Shown in pieces: positions 32,779 to 43,900 of a stretch of DNA of 64,000 nt. The first letter of the stretch is position 1; every line of letters starts with the position of its first letter. Origin of the DNA: Chlorella sorokiniana (lineage: Eukaryota > Chlorophyta > Trebouxiophyceae > Chlorellales > Chlorellaceae). Made by a program: the position numbers and the translations under genes. The notes beneath the pieces were generated by a model that saw only the letters and a program-made list of their open reading frames with translations, ran no database searches and was not told the origin of the DNA. The stretch lies in NCBI GenBank assembly GCA_025917655.1, contig CP084619.1, positions 1,116,001-1,180,000 of the forward strand, read 5' to 3'.

Positions 32779-35700
32779 TTAATAAGTACTGAGCATATGC
32801 TGCCACGCCGGTGAGCCCACCACTGCCCCCAGCCTGCTGTCGCCTTGCGACCACACATGCGCGTACTGGGCCTCCTCTCCACCGCTGCCCTCCGCCATCT
32901 CCTCGTCCCCACCGGTGCCCGCCGCCTGTGCTGCCTGCGGCTCCCTGTTGGTGGCGGCTCCCGCCTCTGCCGCCTGCTGTGCATGGAACTCCGCCGCCGC
33001 ACGGGCGTCCGACTCCTCGCGATCCCAATTGGCGGCCATCTCCCGCCCTCGGGTGTCAGGGGTTGGAGTCGGGGACCGTGAGCAGCCACATGCTCGATTC
33101 CCCTGGCCCGCCGCCCTGCTGCTGCTGCTGCACGCCCAGCTGCGTGCCCGCTGCTGGCTCCTCCAGCACCTCGATCGCGGCCAGCAGCGCGCAGGGGTGG
33201 ATGCCGCTGCTCTCGGGGCCAACCGGCGCAGGGTGAGCCACGGCCTCAATCACCGGCCCCGCCGCTGCCGCTGGCCCCGCCGCTGCTGCCACCCCTGCGC
33301 CAATCGCTCCCGGGTAAGGTGGCGCTACGGGCAAGCCGAGGGACCACGTCGCGCTGCTCATGGCTGGCGGCGGCGCCAGCTCGCCTGTCTGGGGCGTGTA
33401 GAGGAAGCCAGTGTGGCCGGTCATCGACAGAAGCGGGCTGGGGAAGGTGGGGCTGTCTGGTGGCGGCAGGCCCTGACCATGCTGGGGCGCGGCGTCCCAG
33501 ACGGCGACGACGGAAGCGGCTGCTGCACCTCCACTTGCCGCTGCTGGGCCTGCGGCTCCGTCTGCTGCCGCTGCTGGGCCTGCTGCGCCGTCTGCTGACG
33601 ATGCTGGGCCTGCTGCTCCGTCTGCTGACGCTGCTGGGCCTGCTGCTCCGTCTGCGGCGGCTGGGGCTGCTGCTCCGTCTGCTGCAGGGACCGCTCGCCG
33701 GGAGGCGGCTGCAGCTGCAAGCTTGCGGCCAGGTGGTGGCCGGAAGCAGCTGCCTGTGCCACCGCTGCCACTACACCTGCTGCCTGCGCCTCGGCCGGCG
33801 GCGGGCCTGGCTCGCTGCCGTCCGCTGCTGCGACTGGTGCCCCTGCAGCAGCCGCCTCGCCCGCCAGCTCCGCCTGGGCGGCCGCCACGCCGGCCTGCTC
33901 CTCCATCATGAGCTCCTGCTCTTCGTCCAGGGGTGGCAGCGGCGGTTCAAGCACGCCTGCTGCCAGCTGCTGACGGCGCGCCCGCTCCGCTGCCGCGTCC
34001 TGCCCAGCTGCACGCTGCGCAACCTGTTCAATCAGCTGGCCGGGCCGCAGCCACATGAGCAGCGGCTTGGCAATCGGCACCAGCACGTCGTGGCCTGCCC
34101 AGCTGGCGGGCAGCAGCGGGCTGGAGTGCAAGACCTCCACCACCTGCAACACGAAAGCGTAAATTCTTTGAACACAATGACATGAAAGCAGTGCTGGCGA
34201 ATGCCTGAGCACGCGCGTGATGCTGCCTGCTGAACACTCGCTCCAGGCTGAGCAGCCGCGTGCCGGCTGCTGTCATAGGTTCACCTGCACCGTCCTGTAG
34301 AAGGGCGTCATGGCGGCGTTGAACATGGTGCAGGTGACGCCGCGCTTGACCAGCACGTGCGCCACTCCGACGCTGGTGATGGGGTCCACGACGAAGGCAG
34401 CGCCCACGTGGGTGCACCGCTCGACCGCCTGCGCCACCATGGCCAGCACGCGCTCCGGCTCTGAGTACACAACGACAGGGGCGGGCGCGGCAGCTCGCTG
34501 CTGCTGCAGACCGGCCACCCCCTGTCGTTGTGTACTCAGAGCCGGAGCGCGTGCTGGCCATGGTGGCGCAGGCGGTCGAGCGGTGCACCCACGTGGGCGC
34601 TGCCTTCGTCGTGGACCCCATCACCAGCGTCGGAGTGGCGCACGTGCTGGTCAAGCGCGGCGTCACCTGCACCATGTTCAACGCCGCCATGACGCCCTTC
34701 TACAGGACGGTGCAGGTGAACCTATGACAGCAGCCGGCACGCGGCTGCTCAGCCTGGAGCGAGTGTTCAGCAGGCAGCATCACGCGCGTGCTCAGGCACC
34801 CTGCGGGTGCGGCCTGCTGTCCAGCCGCGCGCGCAGCGTGACCGCCATGCCGCAGGACAGCGGCAAAGGCCGCCTCGTTCACGTCGCTCAGCCCAAACAT
34901 CTCGATGACAGGCGCTGCCTGCACCGTGCCGCCCTGCATGAACAGGAGGGTGCATGAACGAGAGTCTGGAATCTGAATGAATGTAAAACAGGGCAGCGAC
35001 ACCAGCGCCATGCAAGAACCGTTTGGGAGCCGCCCCCACCCCACCCCACCCCACCCGCCCAGCAAGGACAACTGCCCACTGCTCACCGCGCTGGCAACCA
35101 CCAGTGACTGCTGAAGGCCGCGCGCCGCCTCCATCCTCCTCATCGTGCCGTAATTCACGGCCGGAGCACCCGCCACAGCCACATGCCTCTGCTTCCAGGC
35201 ATGGCTGTTCAAGTCCAGCATGAAGACCTGCAGCCGGCTGCCGCTGCCCTGCAGCAGGCGCTGCGCAGACGCTTGCATGCGGCACGTCCTCTGCAAACAG
35301 GGACACGATATCACGTGTGTTTGATACGCACCCTGAACCTGAACAACCCGAAGCCGGCTCCCGCCTGCTCTCTCCCACCGCTGTGTGCCGAACTTCCTGG
35401 TGCTCACCAGCTTACCCTCCTCCTTCGGCTTCTCAACCCGCACCAGCGCGCACGCTTGCATGATGTACACAATGACATTCTTCCCCAGCGGACCCACCTG
35501 CAATCGTTCCGGATGATGGCAGGAGTGAGCAAGGCGCAGGAAGCATGCACAGCGCGTGGCGCATGACGGACAAGCAGAGCACATCCCAAGCAGCATGCCA
35601 TGCGCGACCCGGCTGCCTCACGTTGAGCTTAGCGGCCATCTGGGGCCAGGGAGTGTCAGTGTTCCACACCCTGACGCCGCCGCCTCCACGCGGCACGGCG

Positions 35701-38700
35701 GCGCACAGCTCGCTCAGATCCTGCAGGCGGGCAGGACGGGATGTCATGCAGCAGCAGCAGCAGCGGCGCAGCAGCGGGTCCGGGCGTTGGGACAGCCATC
35801 ATGGCCCTCTTGACCAACAAGCAGGCAAGCATGTACAACATGCCATGCCAGGTTTGCACGGGCGGCCCCGGCATTCCCATCACCTTCTCGCTCGTCCCGC
35901 TTGCCAGCAACAACGGGTTGAGCGGCACGCCGGCGGCCCTGACGTGCGGCAGGAAGGCGGTGAGGATGTTCTCCAGCGTGCGCATCGTGCGCTCAGCCTC
36001 GTGCTCGTAGGCCAGAACACCCTCCACCGTCAGCCGCCCAGCCTTGCCGTACGTGGTCTGGAGGTCGGTGATGGCGCGCAGCTGGCCGGGAAACGGCGCC
36101 GCCGCGGCCTGGCCCAGGACCGCCAGCACCTGGATCAGGTTGGCACGCGCGACTGCAAGCAACCGGCAGCGTGAAGCCCAGTCAGACCAGCTGCCGTGCA
36201 TTCAGTTGCCTTGTCATCCCAGGCAGGCTGGCGGAAGGAAGGAAGGGCCCCATGCCAAACCCACCCGTCCTGGAGATCAGTCCGTTGTCGCGCAACGGGG
36301 TGCTGCGACTCTGCAGGAACGCGGCGGTGGCGCCGCGGTCCGCGGCCGCCAGGTACTCATGGGGCTGGAGGGTCTTGGTGACATCCGCCGCCGCGTCGTA
36401 GTTGAGGGCCTGGCGGGCGTCCACCTCGGTAAGCAGCAGCGAGTGCCCGCTGTGCGCGGGGAGGCCCTTTTGCTGCAGCACGTCGACTGGAATGTCCATG
36501 GCCGCAATGCGCAACGTGCGGGCGGGGTTGTCGCCCAGCAGGGGCAGCTCCACCTGGTGGGAGAGCGCAGGTGCAAAAGAGCAGACGTGGTCAATGCAAA
36601 GCGGCGCCGCCAGATGGCACCCTGACTGCCAGCCAGATGCAGGGCGAAACGGCTCAGAAGGGAGCATGCCCATCAAACGCGGGCGCAGCGTGGCGCCGGG
36701 GAGTGCAGGCGCTGGGCGTGCACGGAGAATCTGGGCGGGACGTTCCCCGGCAACCCACCTGCACCTCGAAGGTGACCAGCGTCCCGCTCACAGCAACGGC
36801 TCCCTCCTTGAGCATGTGGCGGAACGCTCCCACCTTGCGCGGCGGCAGGAGGGACAGCATGGGCATGTAGGGGGTCGTCTTGCAGGGGCGGCATGGAGCG
36901 GAATCGCTCGAGCCAGGGCGCAGCCTCGCGTAGGTTGCGGCATCCTCCGTGAGCGCCTTCCACAGCCTGCATGCGACGTGGAAAACGATGCAAGCGAATC
37001 AAAGGGCGAAAGGGAAGCTCGCCGCGTGGGAGAGCGCCCGCATGCGAGCCTGAAGGAGGGTTCGGCCGGCGCAGCGGCGCCTCCTGCTTCCCACTCACTG
37101 CTCGATGAAGCGCCCCACGACGCCACGCCCCCTGAGCGCCACGCTGTGCATGGTGCGCCCATCTGGCCTGGTGCGCGTGTCGACCTTGGCCGGGCCGTAG
37201 CCGGCAGCCTCTAGGAAGGGGTTGACGAGGTCAACCGTCACCTCAGCCATGGCGCGGTTTTCGCTCAGAATGCAGAAAACTTGAGCCTGGGGCTGCTGGC
37301 ATCCCGCCTGCAAGGATGCACGGATTCAAAAGAGTCGTTGTGGGCAGTCGCGCAGGGCAGGCACCTCGGCAGATGGGAAGAGAGTCTCGGGGCAGCCAGA
37401 AGTAGGCACCAAACTGGAACGGCCGGGCATAAGATCCACGCCCCCAAGCGCCGCCATTTCACCTGCGGCTCGGCGCAGTACAGCGCGCCGTCGCCCGAAA
37501 AGCCCCCAGGATGGCCGCCACTTGTGCGGGTTTGGAGGGAAGGTGGCGCCTGCGACACGCAGTGCGGCAGCAATGGCTGGCGACCCAAGCGATCAGGAAA
37601 TTGGCTGGAGCAGGGAATGTGAAGCTCCGCAACGCACCGCCTCGTGCAACAACGCAGGCCGCAGGAACTCACTTGAACATCTCTGCTTCCTGCTTGCCGA
37701 AGCGGCGCGTCTTCCCCCGCTGCCGCGGGGAAAACGGCGTCCAGCCCCTCCCAGACACCATGCGATGCGGCCATGCGCACGACTGCCTTGCACTGCAGGG
37801 TGGCCGGCCGGTTGACGCGGGCGGGCCAGGGCTCGATGACGGCGTGCAGGCTGCATTGGCATTGGGAGCGTAGAAACTGGGGAGAGAGGCGCGGGGGCGT
37901 GAGGTCGCAAGAGGTGGACAGAAGAGCGCGGCATGGCTGAAAGGGAACCGCAAAGAACTCCCGCTGTCAGCCACATGAAGCTGGAATGCATCCACCCACC
38001 TGGTGCTGCCCATGATGCCAGCCATGCGAGGGAGCTGCAATGCCCAGCCCGCGTCTCCCGCCTGCAGGCCGTGCCTCACCGCGCAGACGCGGCTGCCGCT
38101 GTACTCGAGGCCGCAGTCTGTCATCGCCAGACCCAGGCCGACGCCTGCCGCCAGCGGCTGGTTCTGCAGCAGCGGCTGCGGGGAGCTGGGGGCCAGGTGG
38201 CTGTCCAGCTCCCGCACAGGCCGGCCCAGCAGCCCCTCCAGGTCCACACGCCCGCGCACAGCCTTGCTCTCCAGCTTCAGGATCCGCTTGTTCTCCTCCG
38301 CCATCTCTGCCGCGACCTCCTTGGCGTAGCGGAAGCTGCCCCGGTGCGTCAGCTCCTTGAACCAGCCAGGCAGCTTGTCCGGCGGTCCATCCACCACTGC
38401 TACGCCGTACAGGTGCGTCTGCAGAGGCGAGCATGGCAAAGGCCAGCTGGGGCAGTGTGGCTTGGATGCCCTTGGATGCTGGACCGGGAAACTCGCCCAT
38501 GCTGACCATCAGCACGCACCTTGGCCACCTCGGTTTCCTGCGACTTCATCGCCGCCGCCGCCTTGCGCTCCACCAGGTTCTTCACCACCGGCAGGAAGGC
38601 GCGCATCACGCGCTCCTGTGCCGTGGCCGCGGCCGCGGCCTCCGCCTCTGCGCTGCCCGGCGGCGGCGGCTCAGGGTCGGGGCGGTGCGCCGCCGCTTGC

Positions 38701-39297
38701 CCTCCTTCTCCCGCTCCTCCTCCTGCTGGTCCTCCTCCAGCTGCTCCTCCTCCTGCTGCTCCTCCTCCAGCTGCTCCTCCTCCTCGCTGCTCGACCCATC
38801 CAGGCCTGCCGCCTCCGCGTCGAAGGCTGGCGGGACCGGCAGCGCAACAGCCAGCAGGGCTTCATGCGGCGACTCTTGCTGGCTGCAGGGGTTGGGGGGG
38901 AGGCACACTGCGTGTGGGCCGTGCGTACAGCAAGGCAGGCAGGTCTTGCCCTCCACCCGGGCCAACGCTGCGCGCCCCCTCGCCGATCAGGCCGTCCCCC
39001 TCCCACCCCTCGTCGTGCGCGCAAAACCCACTTTGTTACGATGCCCAGCTCGAGCGCCATCTGGTAGCGGTACAACTTCCGTCCGCCCGCGTCCTGTCCA
39101 GCGCCCCACCGTCCACAGTGCAGCTGCTGCAGCGCGAGGCGCCTCGCGGGGGCGCCAGCGGGGGTGCTGCTCATGAAGCGCCACCCCGTCAGCTGCACCT
39201 TGGCTCCACCAAGGCCGTGCACAGCCCGTGCAGCCCAGGCCTCAAGTTCCTCTGGGCCGTCTACCTCTGCCACTGGATAGGCGTTCTGGGCTGCCAT
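32779..39297 (-). CDS. Large multi-exon protein, unrecognised
   Basis: At least ten exons with normal GT-AG introns read as one protein. From the N-terminus they give MAAQNAYPVAEVDGPEELEA and LYRYQMALELGIV; an acidic EEEEQ repeat then a basic RRR stretch (38790-38690); and RAFLPVVKNLVERKAAAAM. GWFKELTHRGSFRYAKEVAA, EVTVDLVNPFLEAAGYGPAK, YMPMLSLLPPRKVGAFRHML and AAMDIPVDVLQQKGLPAHSG follow. Then come LTVEGVLAYEHEAERTMRTL, LGKNVIVYIMQACALVRVE, FMLDLNSHAWKQRHVAVAG, ERVLAMVAQAVERCTHVGAA and VLVPIAKPLLMWLRPGQLIE. The C-terminus is Ala/Gln-rich with a 10-residue repeat. I recognise no domain. It is probably an intracellular protein, since no signal or membrane segment is visible. A perfect 280-bp inverted repeat interrupts one exon. 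N- and C-terminal limits are uncertain: upstream frames to about 39614 are open, and frame changes are needed near 33060. Confidence 0.55.
33541..33690 (-). repeat. 30-bp tandem repeat, about 5 copies, Gln-rich coding
   Basis: Four exact-length 30-bp units (33541, 33571, 33601, 33631) and a diverged fifth encode the decapeptide QQTEQQAQQR with substitutions. It lies in the C-terminal half of the large unknown gene. Confidence 0.85.
34202..34481 (+). repeat. Left arm of perfect 280-bp inverted repeat
   Basis: The reverse complement of 34519-34798, base for base at every position I checked. On the minus strand this arm holds the sense copy of the exon encoding YSEPERVLAMVAQAVERC through MTPFYRTVQ and its GTGAACC donor. 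Confidence 0.95.
34519..34798 (-). repeat. Right arm of perfect 280-bp inverted repeat
   Basis: An antisense copy of the left arm, separated from it by a 37-bp spacer (34482-34518). Removing exactly this arm joins the minus-strand reading frame before it (QQAAPAG) to that in the spacer (VAGLQQQRAAAPAP) without a shift, so it looks like an insertion into an exon. Confidence 0.95.
38699..38790 (-). repeat. GAG-rich imperfect repeat coding an acidic tract
   Basis: Repeats of the form EEEQLEEEQQ encode about 30 acidic residues in the N-terminal part of the large unknown protein, followed by a basic KRRR/RRRR stretch. Confidence 0.8.
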
Positions 39298-40882: not shown

Positions 40883-40955
40883 TGATCCTACCAGGGATCG
40901 AACCTGGAATCTTCGGTTCCGTAGACCGACGCCTTATCCATTGGGCCATAGGACC
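40883..40955 (-). tRNA. tRNA-Arg (anticodon ACG)
   Basis: Read 5' to 3' on the minus strand, the acceptor GGTCCTA pairs with TAGGATC (one G-T). TGGCCCAATGG fits the A box and D arm. Anticodon stem TCGGT/ACCGA encloses loop CTACGGA, anticodon ACG. T arm CCAGG/CCTGG encloses TTCGATC, and GGTTCGATCCC fits the B box. It is 73 nt including discriminator A, with no intron and no encoded CCA. The nearest T-run on this strand is TTTTT at about 40810-40806, some 75 bp downstream, longer than usual for Pol III termination. Confidence 0.93.
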
Positions 40956-40989: not shown

Positions 40990-43900
40990 ATTAAGCCAGA
41001 AAACGTTTTTCTGAGGCTTCCCGCTCTTTCATCCAGTGGTGGCCCAGGTTCCAGCGCGCCCTCTACATCTTCTGCCGCCGCCTGCACCGCGCCAGCCGTG
41101 AGCTGGGCCCCCGCGCCGCCACCGCCCTTGCTGCCCTGGAGGCAGCTGCTCAGCGGTGGGAGGCTGGGGACGACGGCGCCCTGCCAGAGCTTGCCGCAGC
41201 GCACGAGGCGTGGCGGCGGGCAGCCCACTCGGCTGGCATCGCCGAGGCCACCCAGTTGCGCCGCTACACCTGGCTGCATTGCGGCGAGCGGCCCAACCCC
41301 TCCACCTCCCGGCAGCTGCAGCCTGCCCGGCATGTTACCACCATCCCTGCGCTGCGAGGTTCCGGCGGCGCCTTGCACACCGGCCCCTCAGCCGCAGCGG
41401 TGGCGGTGCAGGCAGCCGCGGCCATTTCTGCAGCGCCCACCACCTCTGCCGCCGCCCAGGATGAGGTCAGCGCAGCGGTGCGCAGTGGCCGCCGCCTCAC
41501 CGAGCTGCAGGCAGCTTCCCTGGGCGAGGCTGCCTTCTCTGCCGAGGAGGTGCTGCGCGCCATGCGACGCGTCAAGCCGGGCAAGTCGCCTGGCCTGGAC
41601 GGCGTCCCCCCCGACCTGTACCGCCACCTCCGCACCGCCTTTGCCCCCTCTTCTCCCGCCTCTTCACCGCCATTGCCTCCACCGGCCAGCTGCCGCGCTC
41701 ATTCCATGAGGGGCTCATCACCTTCCTCTTCAAGGCTGGCGACCGCGCTGACCCCGCCTGCTACCGCCCCATCACCCTGCTCGGCGCCGACTATCGCCTC
41801 TATGCGCTTGTCCTGGCCCGCCGCCTTGGGCCCTGCCTCCCCTCCGTCATCGACCCAGAGCAGGTTGCCTTTGTGCCCGGCCGCCGCATCGGCGACAACA
41901 TCATGGCCCTGCAGCTCCTCCCCCACCTCCTCCGCCGTGCGGGCCGCTGGGCGCTGGCGGCCTTCTGCGACTTCCGCAAGGCCTACGACACCATCGACCG
42001 CTCCTTCCTCTTCCGCATCATGGCGGACCTGGGCGTCGGCGAGGGCTTCCTCTCCCTGGTCCGCCCCCTCCTCCACGGCACCCGCGCCCGCGCCCTGGTC
42101 AGCGGCTTCATCTCCTCCCCCGCCGACTTCCTCGCAGGCGTGCGCCAGGGCTGCCCGCTGGCCCCGCTGCTCTACCTGTTTGTCGCCCAGGCCCTGCTTG
42201 CCTTCCTGCGCCAGCGTGGCGTTGGCCTGCGCGACCTCCTGCCCGGCTCCTCCCTCACCACCACCACCGGCTGCTATGCTGACGACGCGCACATCCTGCT
42301 GGACTCTCCAGCCCAGCTGCCCGCCTTCCTGGGCGCCATGGACACCTTTGGCGACGCCACCGGTGGCCACCGGTACCGGGCAGCGCCTCAACCCCTCCAA
42401 AACGCAGCTGCTCCCCCTCGGCGCCGTGCCCACCGACGTGGAAGCGGCGCTGCCACCCCGCGGCGCGCCGCGGCCTGCGCGTCGTCTCCTCCGTCACCGC
42501 CCTCGGCATCCCCTTTGCCAACGGCGAACCGCCCGCAGCCGCCACCGCCGCCACCTGGGCCTGCCTGCTGGCCCGGGTGGAGACCGTGTACGCCCGCATC
42601 GCCCGCCTTGGCCTCTCCGTCTTCGGGCGGGCCTTTGCCAGCGCCGGCTATGGCGTGCCGAAGCTGCTCTACCACTCCGAGTTCCTGGGCCACCCCCGCC
42701 GCCATCGCTGACCGCCTTGCGCGCATCACGGCGCGCCTTGTGGACCGCAGCCAGGGCCCCTCCGCCACGCAGCGGCGCTTTGCCGGCCTGCACCGCGACG
42801 TCCTGCCTGGGCGGCCTGCTGACGGCGGCTTTGGGGCGCTGCCCTGGCTCCTCCACATCTCGGCCCGCCATGCCAGCTGGGCGGCCCGCCTCCTCACCTC
42901 CCCTCCGCCTCCCCTCACACACCTCGCAGGGGCGGCGGCCCCTCCCCCGACCCGCCACCTCCCTTGCCTCCCCTTCCGCCGCTCCCGGCCGCCGCCCGCC
43001 CCCACCTCCTGACGCACCGGCCCCTCCGGAGGAGCGGCTCCCGCCCTGGGTGGCGCTGGCGTACGAGCTGCTTGACGGCCTGCCGCCAGCGGGCCTGCTG
43101 TTCTGGCCCATCCACCAGCCCCTGCCGGCGTCGCTCGCCCACCTGCCACCGCCCTCCTCCGCCTGCGGGCCGCCCTCGCCTCCTTGCCACCCCCAGCCGA
43201 CCTGGCGCCCCAGCAGCTCCGACCCGGCCCCTGGTGCCTCTCCCTGCCCCTGTGGGGCAACCCCTTCCTGGTCTCAGCAGCCCACCCCGCCGGCCTGGAC
43301 CACGCCTTCACCGACTTCCTAGCAGCAGGGGTGGGCACCCTCGGGCGCGCGCTCGCTGTTGAGCGGGCTGTGGCGGCAGCGCCCACGCAGGCGGCTTACG
43401 TCAGCCTGGTGCGCCACCCGCTCTTAGCCTCCTCCCGGCGTTTGCACAGCGCCACATGGCGGCGGAGCGCCTCGCAGCTCTGCTGGCGGCGGTCCCCGCT
43501 GCTTGGGTAGCGGCAGCGCGCGCGGCCGCTGCTGCTGCGGCCCCACCGCGGCCGCCCTCCCCGCCCACGTCCTCCACACCCTCCTTCTCCCTCGCCTGGC
43601 CTGGCGGCTGCCCGCCGGCCGGACCGTCAGCTTCGCGCGGCTCACCGTGCGCACAGCCCACCGCGCTGCTGGCGGCGCCAGCTGCTCAGCAGCGTGCCAG
43701 CCTTCGCCTTGCCCCCTTTGCGTCGCTCGCCACCGCCGGCAGCCCCCTTCCCCTTCCCACCTCCCGAGCTCCAGGCTGCCATGCGCCGGCTGTGGCGCCT
43801 GCCCTGGGAGAATGGACGGAAGGAGGTGTTCTTTCGGCTGGCCTACGATGCCCTCCCCACCGCAGCCCGCCTGCACCGCGACCAGCCGTGCGAGTGCGGG

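What the first reader, a model, noticed from the sequence alone, without database searches (positions are those of the whole stretch)
34202..34798. Perfect 280-bp inverted repeat splitting an exon of an unknown gene
Arms 34202-34481 and 34519-34798 are exact reverse complements around a 37-bp spacer. The left arm carries the sense copy of an exon of the surrounding minus-strand gene, and the right arm is an antisense copy. Deleting only the right arm joins QQAAPAG directly and in frame to VAGLQQQRAAAPAP and then YSEPERV. So the right arm is the intruder. It is either a very young fold-back (templated, snap-back) duplication or a read or assembly artefact. If real, it would give the transcript a 280-bp hairpin, a possible source of small RNAs.
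Basis: seen in the sequence. Interest (0 to 1): 0.8.

Follow-up and report, generated by a model that had tools for sequence, protein, structure and literature searches.

The report
Fold-back copy splitting an exon
A 280-base piece of a gene has been copied backwards and pasted right beside itself inside an exon, most likely by one recent DNA-repair or replication error that broke the gene; it is a large, very fresh example of a known kind of mutation.

Summary
A search of the 38.8-Mb assembly with the left arm plus spacer matched only these two arms. They lie in a minus-strand, many-exon gene of an unnamed photosynthetic eukaryote. Only the left arm carries the sense copy in the right place, so the right arm was added. 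As assembled, the insert adds 32 foreign codons and a stop; in-frame splice bypasses exist but are weak. Best explanation: one fold-back (snap-back) synthesis event at a break or stalled fork, copying 280 bases of the neighbouring strand and rejoining with 0-3 bases of homology. Zero differences put the arms below about 1.1% divergence. An assembly artefact cannot be excluded without reads. The genome has Argonaute, RNase III and POLQ-type matches, so a self-silencing hairpin is possible but unshown. New member of a known kind of mutation.

The parts
34202..34481 (-). Left arm: the original (template) copy; 197 nt of exon 15 of the model (34481-34285) in sense plus the first 83 nt of the following intron (34284-34202)
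   Evidence: identity of arms; exon and splice sites CAG|GTGAACC at 34284 and GTTGCAG at 34144; paralogues
34482..34518 (-). 37-nt spacer, the hairpin loop; in the gene frame it reads as part of VAGLQQQRAAAPA; it belongs to a linker of about 18 residues absent from both paralogues
34519..34798 (-). Right arm: antisense copy of the left arm, the inserted segment; its start and the right flank share CCC (junction ambiguous over 3 bases)
34799..34933 (-). Exon part upstream of the insertion (GGTVQAAP...QQAAPAG)
34700..34702 (-). TAG stop reached 32 codons into the insert
33421..34143 (-). Next exon of the gene (VVEVLHSSPLLPASW...), 48% identical to the contig-3 paralogue in the stretch that matched
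33421..39297 (-). Host gene, about 16 exons by hand model, no Pfam family above cut-off; joins of exons 1-3 and frame of exons 5-6 uncertain

Best explanation
One recent fold-back synthesis event. A break or stalled fork near the present 34518/34799 junction left a single-stranded 3' end; the end folded back on its own strand (observed register: terminal CCC on GGG, GCC on GGC, two mismatches between, loop of 27 bases), was extended for about 280 bases copying the adjacent exon and intron, then came off and was joined to the other side with 0-3 bases of homology and no detectable loss of coding frame. The result is a perfect inverted repeat that interrupts the exon and ends the reading frame after 32 foreign codons. 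Shown: exact repeat, uninterrupted frame in two paralogues, junction sequences, stop codon. Inferred: that the DNA is real, the fold-back intermediate, the polymerase (delta or theta type), loss of function.
For: Exact 280/280 inverted copy of immediately adjacent sequence with no third copy matched in the genome, so no mobile element or distant donor is needed. Paralogues C3:3592129-3592751 and C11:776693-777215 match across the site and an open frame of each runs through it. Frame is kept across the flank junction. CCC is shared by the insert start and the right flank. In the observed register 6 of the last 8 bases pair, with the terminal 3 paired. A closely similar process is described in yeast: a 10-bp imperfect inverted microhomology with a 41-nt loop, polymerase-delta extension, NHEJ capture with 0-5 bp homology (PMC11724301, passages). 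POLQ_helical matches exist in this genome.
Against: The pairing at the priming site is weak evidence: 17% of 3,000 random points in the window offer as good a match at some loop of 10-60 (0.5% of 20,000 at loop 27), and junction homology of 3 or more occurs at 6.9% of 20,000 random points. The insert end shares no base with the left flank. The yeast fold-back inversions were 2 to about 150 bp, mostly under 14 bp, so 280 is long for that route. No strain without the insert was available. The paralogues lack the linker in which the junction sits, so the exact pre-insertion sequence is not proven.
Confidence: 0.72

Rival explanations
1. Sequencing or assembly artefact: the right arm is a fold-back chimaera (missed adapter, library template switch or local misassembly) and the genomic exon is intact.
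For: Arms are identical with no private mutation. The insert would break a gene that otherwise has consistent splice sites. Only this one case was printed in 285,936 bases. No reads were available.
Against: Both outer flanks are unique and continue the same gene, so two precise junctions would be needed in the consensus; typical fold-back read artefacts do not return to the far flank (recalled, from no call).
Confidence: 0.2
2. Nascent self-silencing hairpin gene (can be true together with the best explanation): the pre-mRNA folds into a 280-bp duplex that Dicer-like enzymes cut into small RNAs against the gene itself, an early step of microRNA or hairpin-RNA gene birth by inverted duplication.
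For: Predicted perfect hairpin. Argonaute exons (4 Piwi matches in about 1.3 kb), RNase III domains (3 matches, 2 over the cut-off); one RNase III locus has a frame that reads by eye like a double-stranded-RNA-binding domain (not scanned). Template switching making hairpins in one step is described (PMC8794818, abstract).
Against: No expression or small-RNA data. No sequence reach to the two paralogues: best 21-nt window 17 of 21, longest exact match 9-10 depending on locus and strand, as for 20 shuffles of the arm against one of them (9-13). A complete Dicer gene was not shown. A chance by-product needs no function.
Confidence: 0.05
3. The right arm is removed by splicing and behaves as (part of) a new intron, so the gene still works (can be true together with the best explanation).
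For: In-frame pairs exist, for example donor 34882 with acceptor 34503.
Against: Their scores, 5.7 and 4.5, lie below all 13 introns used (donors 7.2-13.3, acceptors 6.9-14.4; these introns trained the matrix, so their own scores are inflated), and 28 residues before and 5 after the insertion would be lost. The hairpin would also bury the normal donor at 34284 (inference).
Confidence: 0.04
4. Foldback-type transposon or MITE with long terminal inverted repeats.
For: Long inverted arms around a short centre; CCC shared by the start of the right arm and the flank after it.
Against: The left arm is the gene's own exon and intron, its exon part shared in place with paralogues. The only two places matched in the genome are the arms themselves. 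The outer ends of the whole structure, GAA and CCC, show no target duplication.
Confidence: 0.01

Closest known systems
Fold-back templated inverted insertions at double-strand breaks in yeast (PMC11724301; passages including part of the abstract)
   Same: Local inverted copy next to the break, short imperfect inverted microhomology, loop of similar size (41 nt there, 27-37 here), second end joined with 0-5 bp homology
   Different: Those were 2 to about 150 bp, mostly under 14 bp; here 280 bp, found in a genome and not induced, in another lineage, enzymes unknown
Short-range template switch mutations, four-point model (PMC7954356 passages; PMC8794818 abstract)
   Same: Reverse-complement copy beside its source giving a perfect inverted repeat and hairpin
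   Different: Defined there by comparison of related genomes or ancestors; here by paralogues and frame. Event sizes there were not retrieved (the length terms tried had no hit).
Coding palindromes of nematomorph mitochondrial genes (PMC6649704 abstract and passages)
   Same: Perfect long inverted repeats inside protein-coding sequence (largest arm 142 bp there), mean spacing 37 bp there and 37 here
   Different: There both arms code conserved protein and function is kept; here only one arm is in coding sense and the other brings a stop; not a mitochondrial gene
Inverted-duplication origin of plant microRNA genes (recalled; one search listed papers holding the words, none was opened)
   Same: Inverted copy of a gene fragment able to make a hairpin RNA
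   Different: There a separate locus transcribes the hairpin; here the copy lies inside its own source gene

Membership tests
Fold-back / template-switch inverted duplication | Inserted segment is an exact or near-exact reverse complement of adjacent sequence | tested here: met
   280 of 280
Fold-back / template-switch inverted duplication | Flanks are contiguous in the state without the insert | tested here: met
   Protein level: two paralogues have one continuous frame across the site and frame is kept here; base level not provable, as the paralogues lack the linker
Fold-back / template-switch inverted duplication | Inverted microhomology at the priming point | tested here: inconclusive
   6 of 8 with terminal 3 paired, but 17% of random points offer as much at some loop of 10-60
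Fold-back / template-switch inverted duplication | Allele or strain without the insert | not testable with these tools
   No relatives of this genome are held (text)
Foldback transposon / MITE | Dispersed copies | tested here: not met
   The only places matched were the two arms
Foldback transposon / MITE | Target-site duplication outside the arms | tested here: not met
   Outer flanks GAA and CCC
Coding palindrome (nematomorph type) | Both arms code conserved protein in the gene's frame | tested here: not met
   Right arm read in frame gives a stop after 32 codons
Hairpin-RNA / proto-microRNA locus | Small RNAs from the arms bound to Argonaute | not testable with these tools
   No RNA data
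Hairpin-RNA / proto-microRNA locus | RNA-silencing genes in the genome | tested here: inconclusive
   Piwi domain matches and RNase III matches are there; a complete Dicer gene was not shown
Newly gained intron | Splice sites that remove the insert in frame | tested here: inconclusive
   In-frame pairs exist, but the best scores below all 13 introns used; no RNA data

The most novel reading that the evidence does not exclude
A hairpin-RNA gene caught at birth: one fold-back event turned an exon into a 280-bp hairpin inside its own gene, and the product now silences the gene (or its other allele) through the genome's Argonaute and RNase III proteins before any divergence of the arms.
Probability: 0.06. 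Interest if true: 0.65.

Novelty: new member of a known kind. Interest (0 to 1): 0.35.

Why it matters
If the DNA is real it is a long and fresh fold-back insertion with both junctions, source and uninterrupted paralogues visible, useful for studying which polymerase makes such events and whether a perfect coding hairpin is silenced, spliced or lost. If it is an artefact, it is a clean example of an assembly error that would mis-annotate a gene.

Tried and rejected
Protein relatives: one search of residues 560-1070 of the hand-joined protein scored the 7,985 candidates sharing most words and none reached E 10; that database may hold few algal proteins, so this is weak. Pfam gave nothing above its cut-offs for 6 frames (sub-threshold names at E 0.13-0.53, among them ARID, Flu_C_NS1 and TraT, read as noise) and nothing for 4 joined pieces. 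PDB gave three weak hits (best E 0.0047, an Ig-like domain protein), not pursued. So the gene's function is unknown beyond having two paralogues.

Organism: the eukaryotic SSU rRNA search did not complete five times. 41 light-harvesting (PF00504) matches and spliced genes point to a photosynthetic eukaryote; green alga is my guess from recall, not a test. A paper search for a 38.8-Mb green alga genome returned none.

Rejected: transposon; nematomorph-like coding palindrome; left arm as the intruder. The 6-base CAGGGG/CCCCTG pairing that I first considered as the primer does not fit the observed register (5 Cs at the junction); the register that fits is the weaker one given above.

Full report
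What is there. The arms 34202-34481 and 34519-34798 are exact reverse complements over 280 bases with 37 bases between; with two mismatches the pairing extends to 285. A search of the assembly (38,804,885 bases, 15 contigs) with the left arm plus spacer matched only the two arms; that search scores only its best candidates. In 285,936 bases of window and fetched loci no other exact inverted repeat of at least 24 bases within 5 kb was printed; the scan dropped low-complexity arms uncounted, left out the two loci that repeat the window, and counted four overlapping Argonaute loci in full. Of that sample 200 kb are 20 stretches of 10 kb on contigs 1 and 2 only, so it says little about the genome-wide rate.

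The gene. The arms lie in a minus-strand gene from about 39297 to 33421, about 16 exons by hand. The thirteen introns I used have GT-AG ends and lengths 101-205. The concatenated frame of my script failed at the first exons, so I read frames exon by exon; joins of exons 1-3 and the frame of exons 5-6 are uncertain, the part around the finding is not. The left arm holds 197 bases of the exon ending at 34285 and the first 83 bases of the intron after it. The right arm holds the antisense of the same.

Which arm is new. A search of the own genome with the joined C-terminal part found two paralogues, C3:3592129-3592751 (48% and 39% identity in two stretches) and C11:776693-777215 (51% and 35%). 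In both, one open frame runs from the stretch matching the exon part before the insertion straight into the stretch matching the left arm (alignment: 40% and 38% identity to the joined exon). Reading by eye, both then change frame and continue VDEVMLPSAFMPAEW (C3) or VDEVLLPSAFMPAGW (C11), which match the exon after the left arm (VVEVLHSSPLLPASW). So the sense copy in the left arm is the resident and the right arm was added. Against full certainty: both paralogues lack the linker of about 18 residues in which the junction lies, so the base-exact empty site is inferred from the kept frame.

Consequence. Reading on from the upstream exon, the insert gives 32 codons and a TAG at 34702-34700, losing about 318 codons of the model (exons of 234 and 723 bases). 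The best in-frame splice bypass (donor 34882, acceptor 34503) scores 5.7 and 4.5, under every one of the 13 introns (7.2-13.3 and 6.9-14.4), although those introns trained the matrix. I therefore expect a null or truncated allele, in a gene with two relatives that may cover for it (inference).

How it arose. The insert start and the right flank share CCC, giving 3 bases of ambiguity; the insert end shares nothing with the left flank. In the register fixed by the sequence the folded 3' end pairs 3 terminal bases, then two mismatches, then three more pairs, loop 27. This is suggestive, not strong: 6.9% of 20,000 random points give junction homology of 3 or more, 0.5% of 20,000 give the 6-of-8 pairing at loop 27, and 17% of 3,000 give it at some loop from 10 to 60. 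The yeast study of fold-back inversions describes the same anatomy: priming at a 10-bp imperfect inverted microhomology with a 41-nt loop, polymerase delta extension, capture by end joining with 0-5 bp homology (median 2), lengths 2 to about 150 bp (PMC11724301, passages). Polymerase theta is reported to extend single strands by stem-loop synthesis from only two 3'-terminal bases (PMC11292364, seen only as the cut start of its abstract in the listing). This genome has two POLQ_helical matches 1.1 kb apart on contig 12. Which enzyme acted is not known.

Age. Zero differences in 280 gives a 95% upper bound of 1.06% divergence between arms. Gene conversion between arms could also keep them equal, so youth is likely but not proven.

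RNA silencing. The transcript would fold at -705.2 kcal/mol, z -56. The genome has an Argonaute (4 Piwi-domain matches within C1:3585026-3586341) and RNase III domains (3 matches, 2 over the cut-off). Small RNAs from the arms would not reach the two paralogue loci (best 17 of 21). Whether any are made is unknown.

Artefact. No reads were available. Return to the correct far flank argues against a simple fold-back read, but I leave 0.2 for it.

Known or new. Perfect inverted repeats from template switching are well described (PMC7954356 passages; PMC8794818 abstract), and coding palindromes of comparable size exist in nematomorph mitochondria, where both arms code (PMC6649704 abstract and passages). 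Filed as a new member of a known kind.

Noticed in passing
window 41028 to about 45084, + strand: Non-LTR-like retroelement with a reverse transcriptase frame (RVT_1, E 1.5e-20). A 701-base stretch of it matches 9 other places over nearly its whole length at 96-99% identity, plus shorter or more diverged ones (25 matches listed in all, the window's own included), so the family moved recently. At the 5' end, 6 of 10 other copies examined go on beyond 41028 with a shared sequence that the window copy lacks; at the 3' end 9 of 10 matched, several as nested or repeated pieces.
   Followed up: partly
window 40883-40955 (minus) beside the element start at 41028; L041; L043: 72 bases separate a tRNA-Arg gene from the truncated 5' end of the element. 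Of 10 other copies, 2 have a tRNA gene about 0.4-0.6 kb before their matched start with the tRNA 5' end facing the element (L041 Lys; L043 Phe, with a Val gene further out in the other direction); 8 of 10 show none. Background: 0 tRNA genes in 20 stretches of 10 kb, 0 in the 10 3' sides. A lead for tRNA-near insertion, not a result.
   Followed up: partly
window 33536-33685: 30-bp minisatellite, about 5 copies, in the last exon of the host gene model, coding Q-rich repeats such as QQTEQQAQQR.
   Followed up: no
G000 C3:3592129-3592751 (L035) and C11:776693-777215 (L037): By eye the two paralogue loci resemble each other far more than the host gene, and both also hold a flanking frame beginning GKSNAWEAINVPGPY, so they look like a fairly recent segmental duplication.
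   Followed up: no
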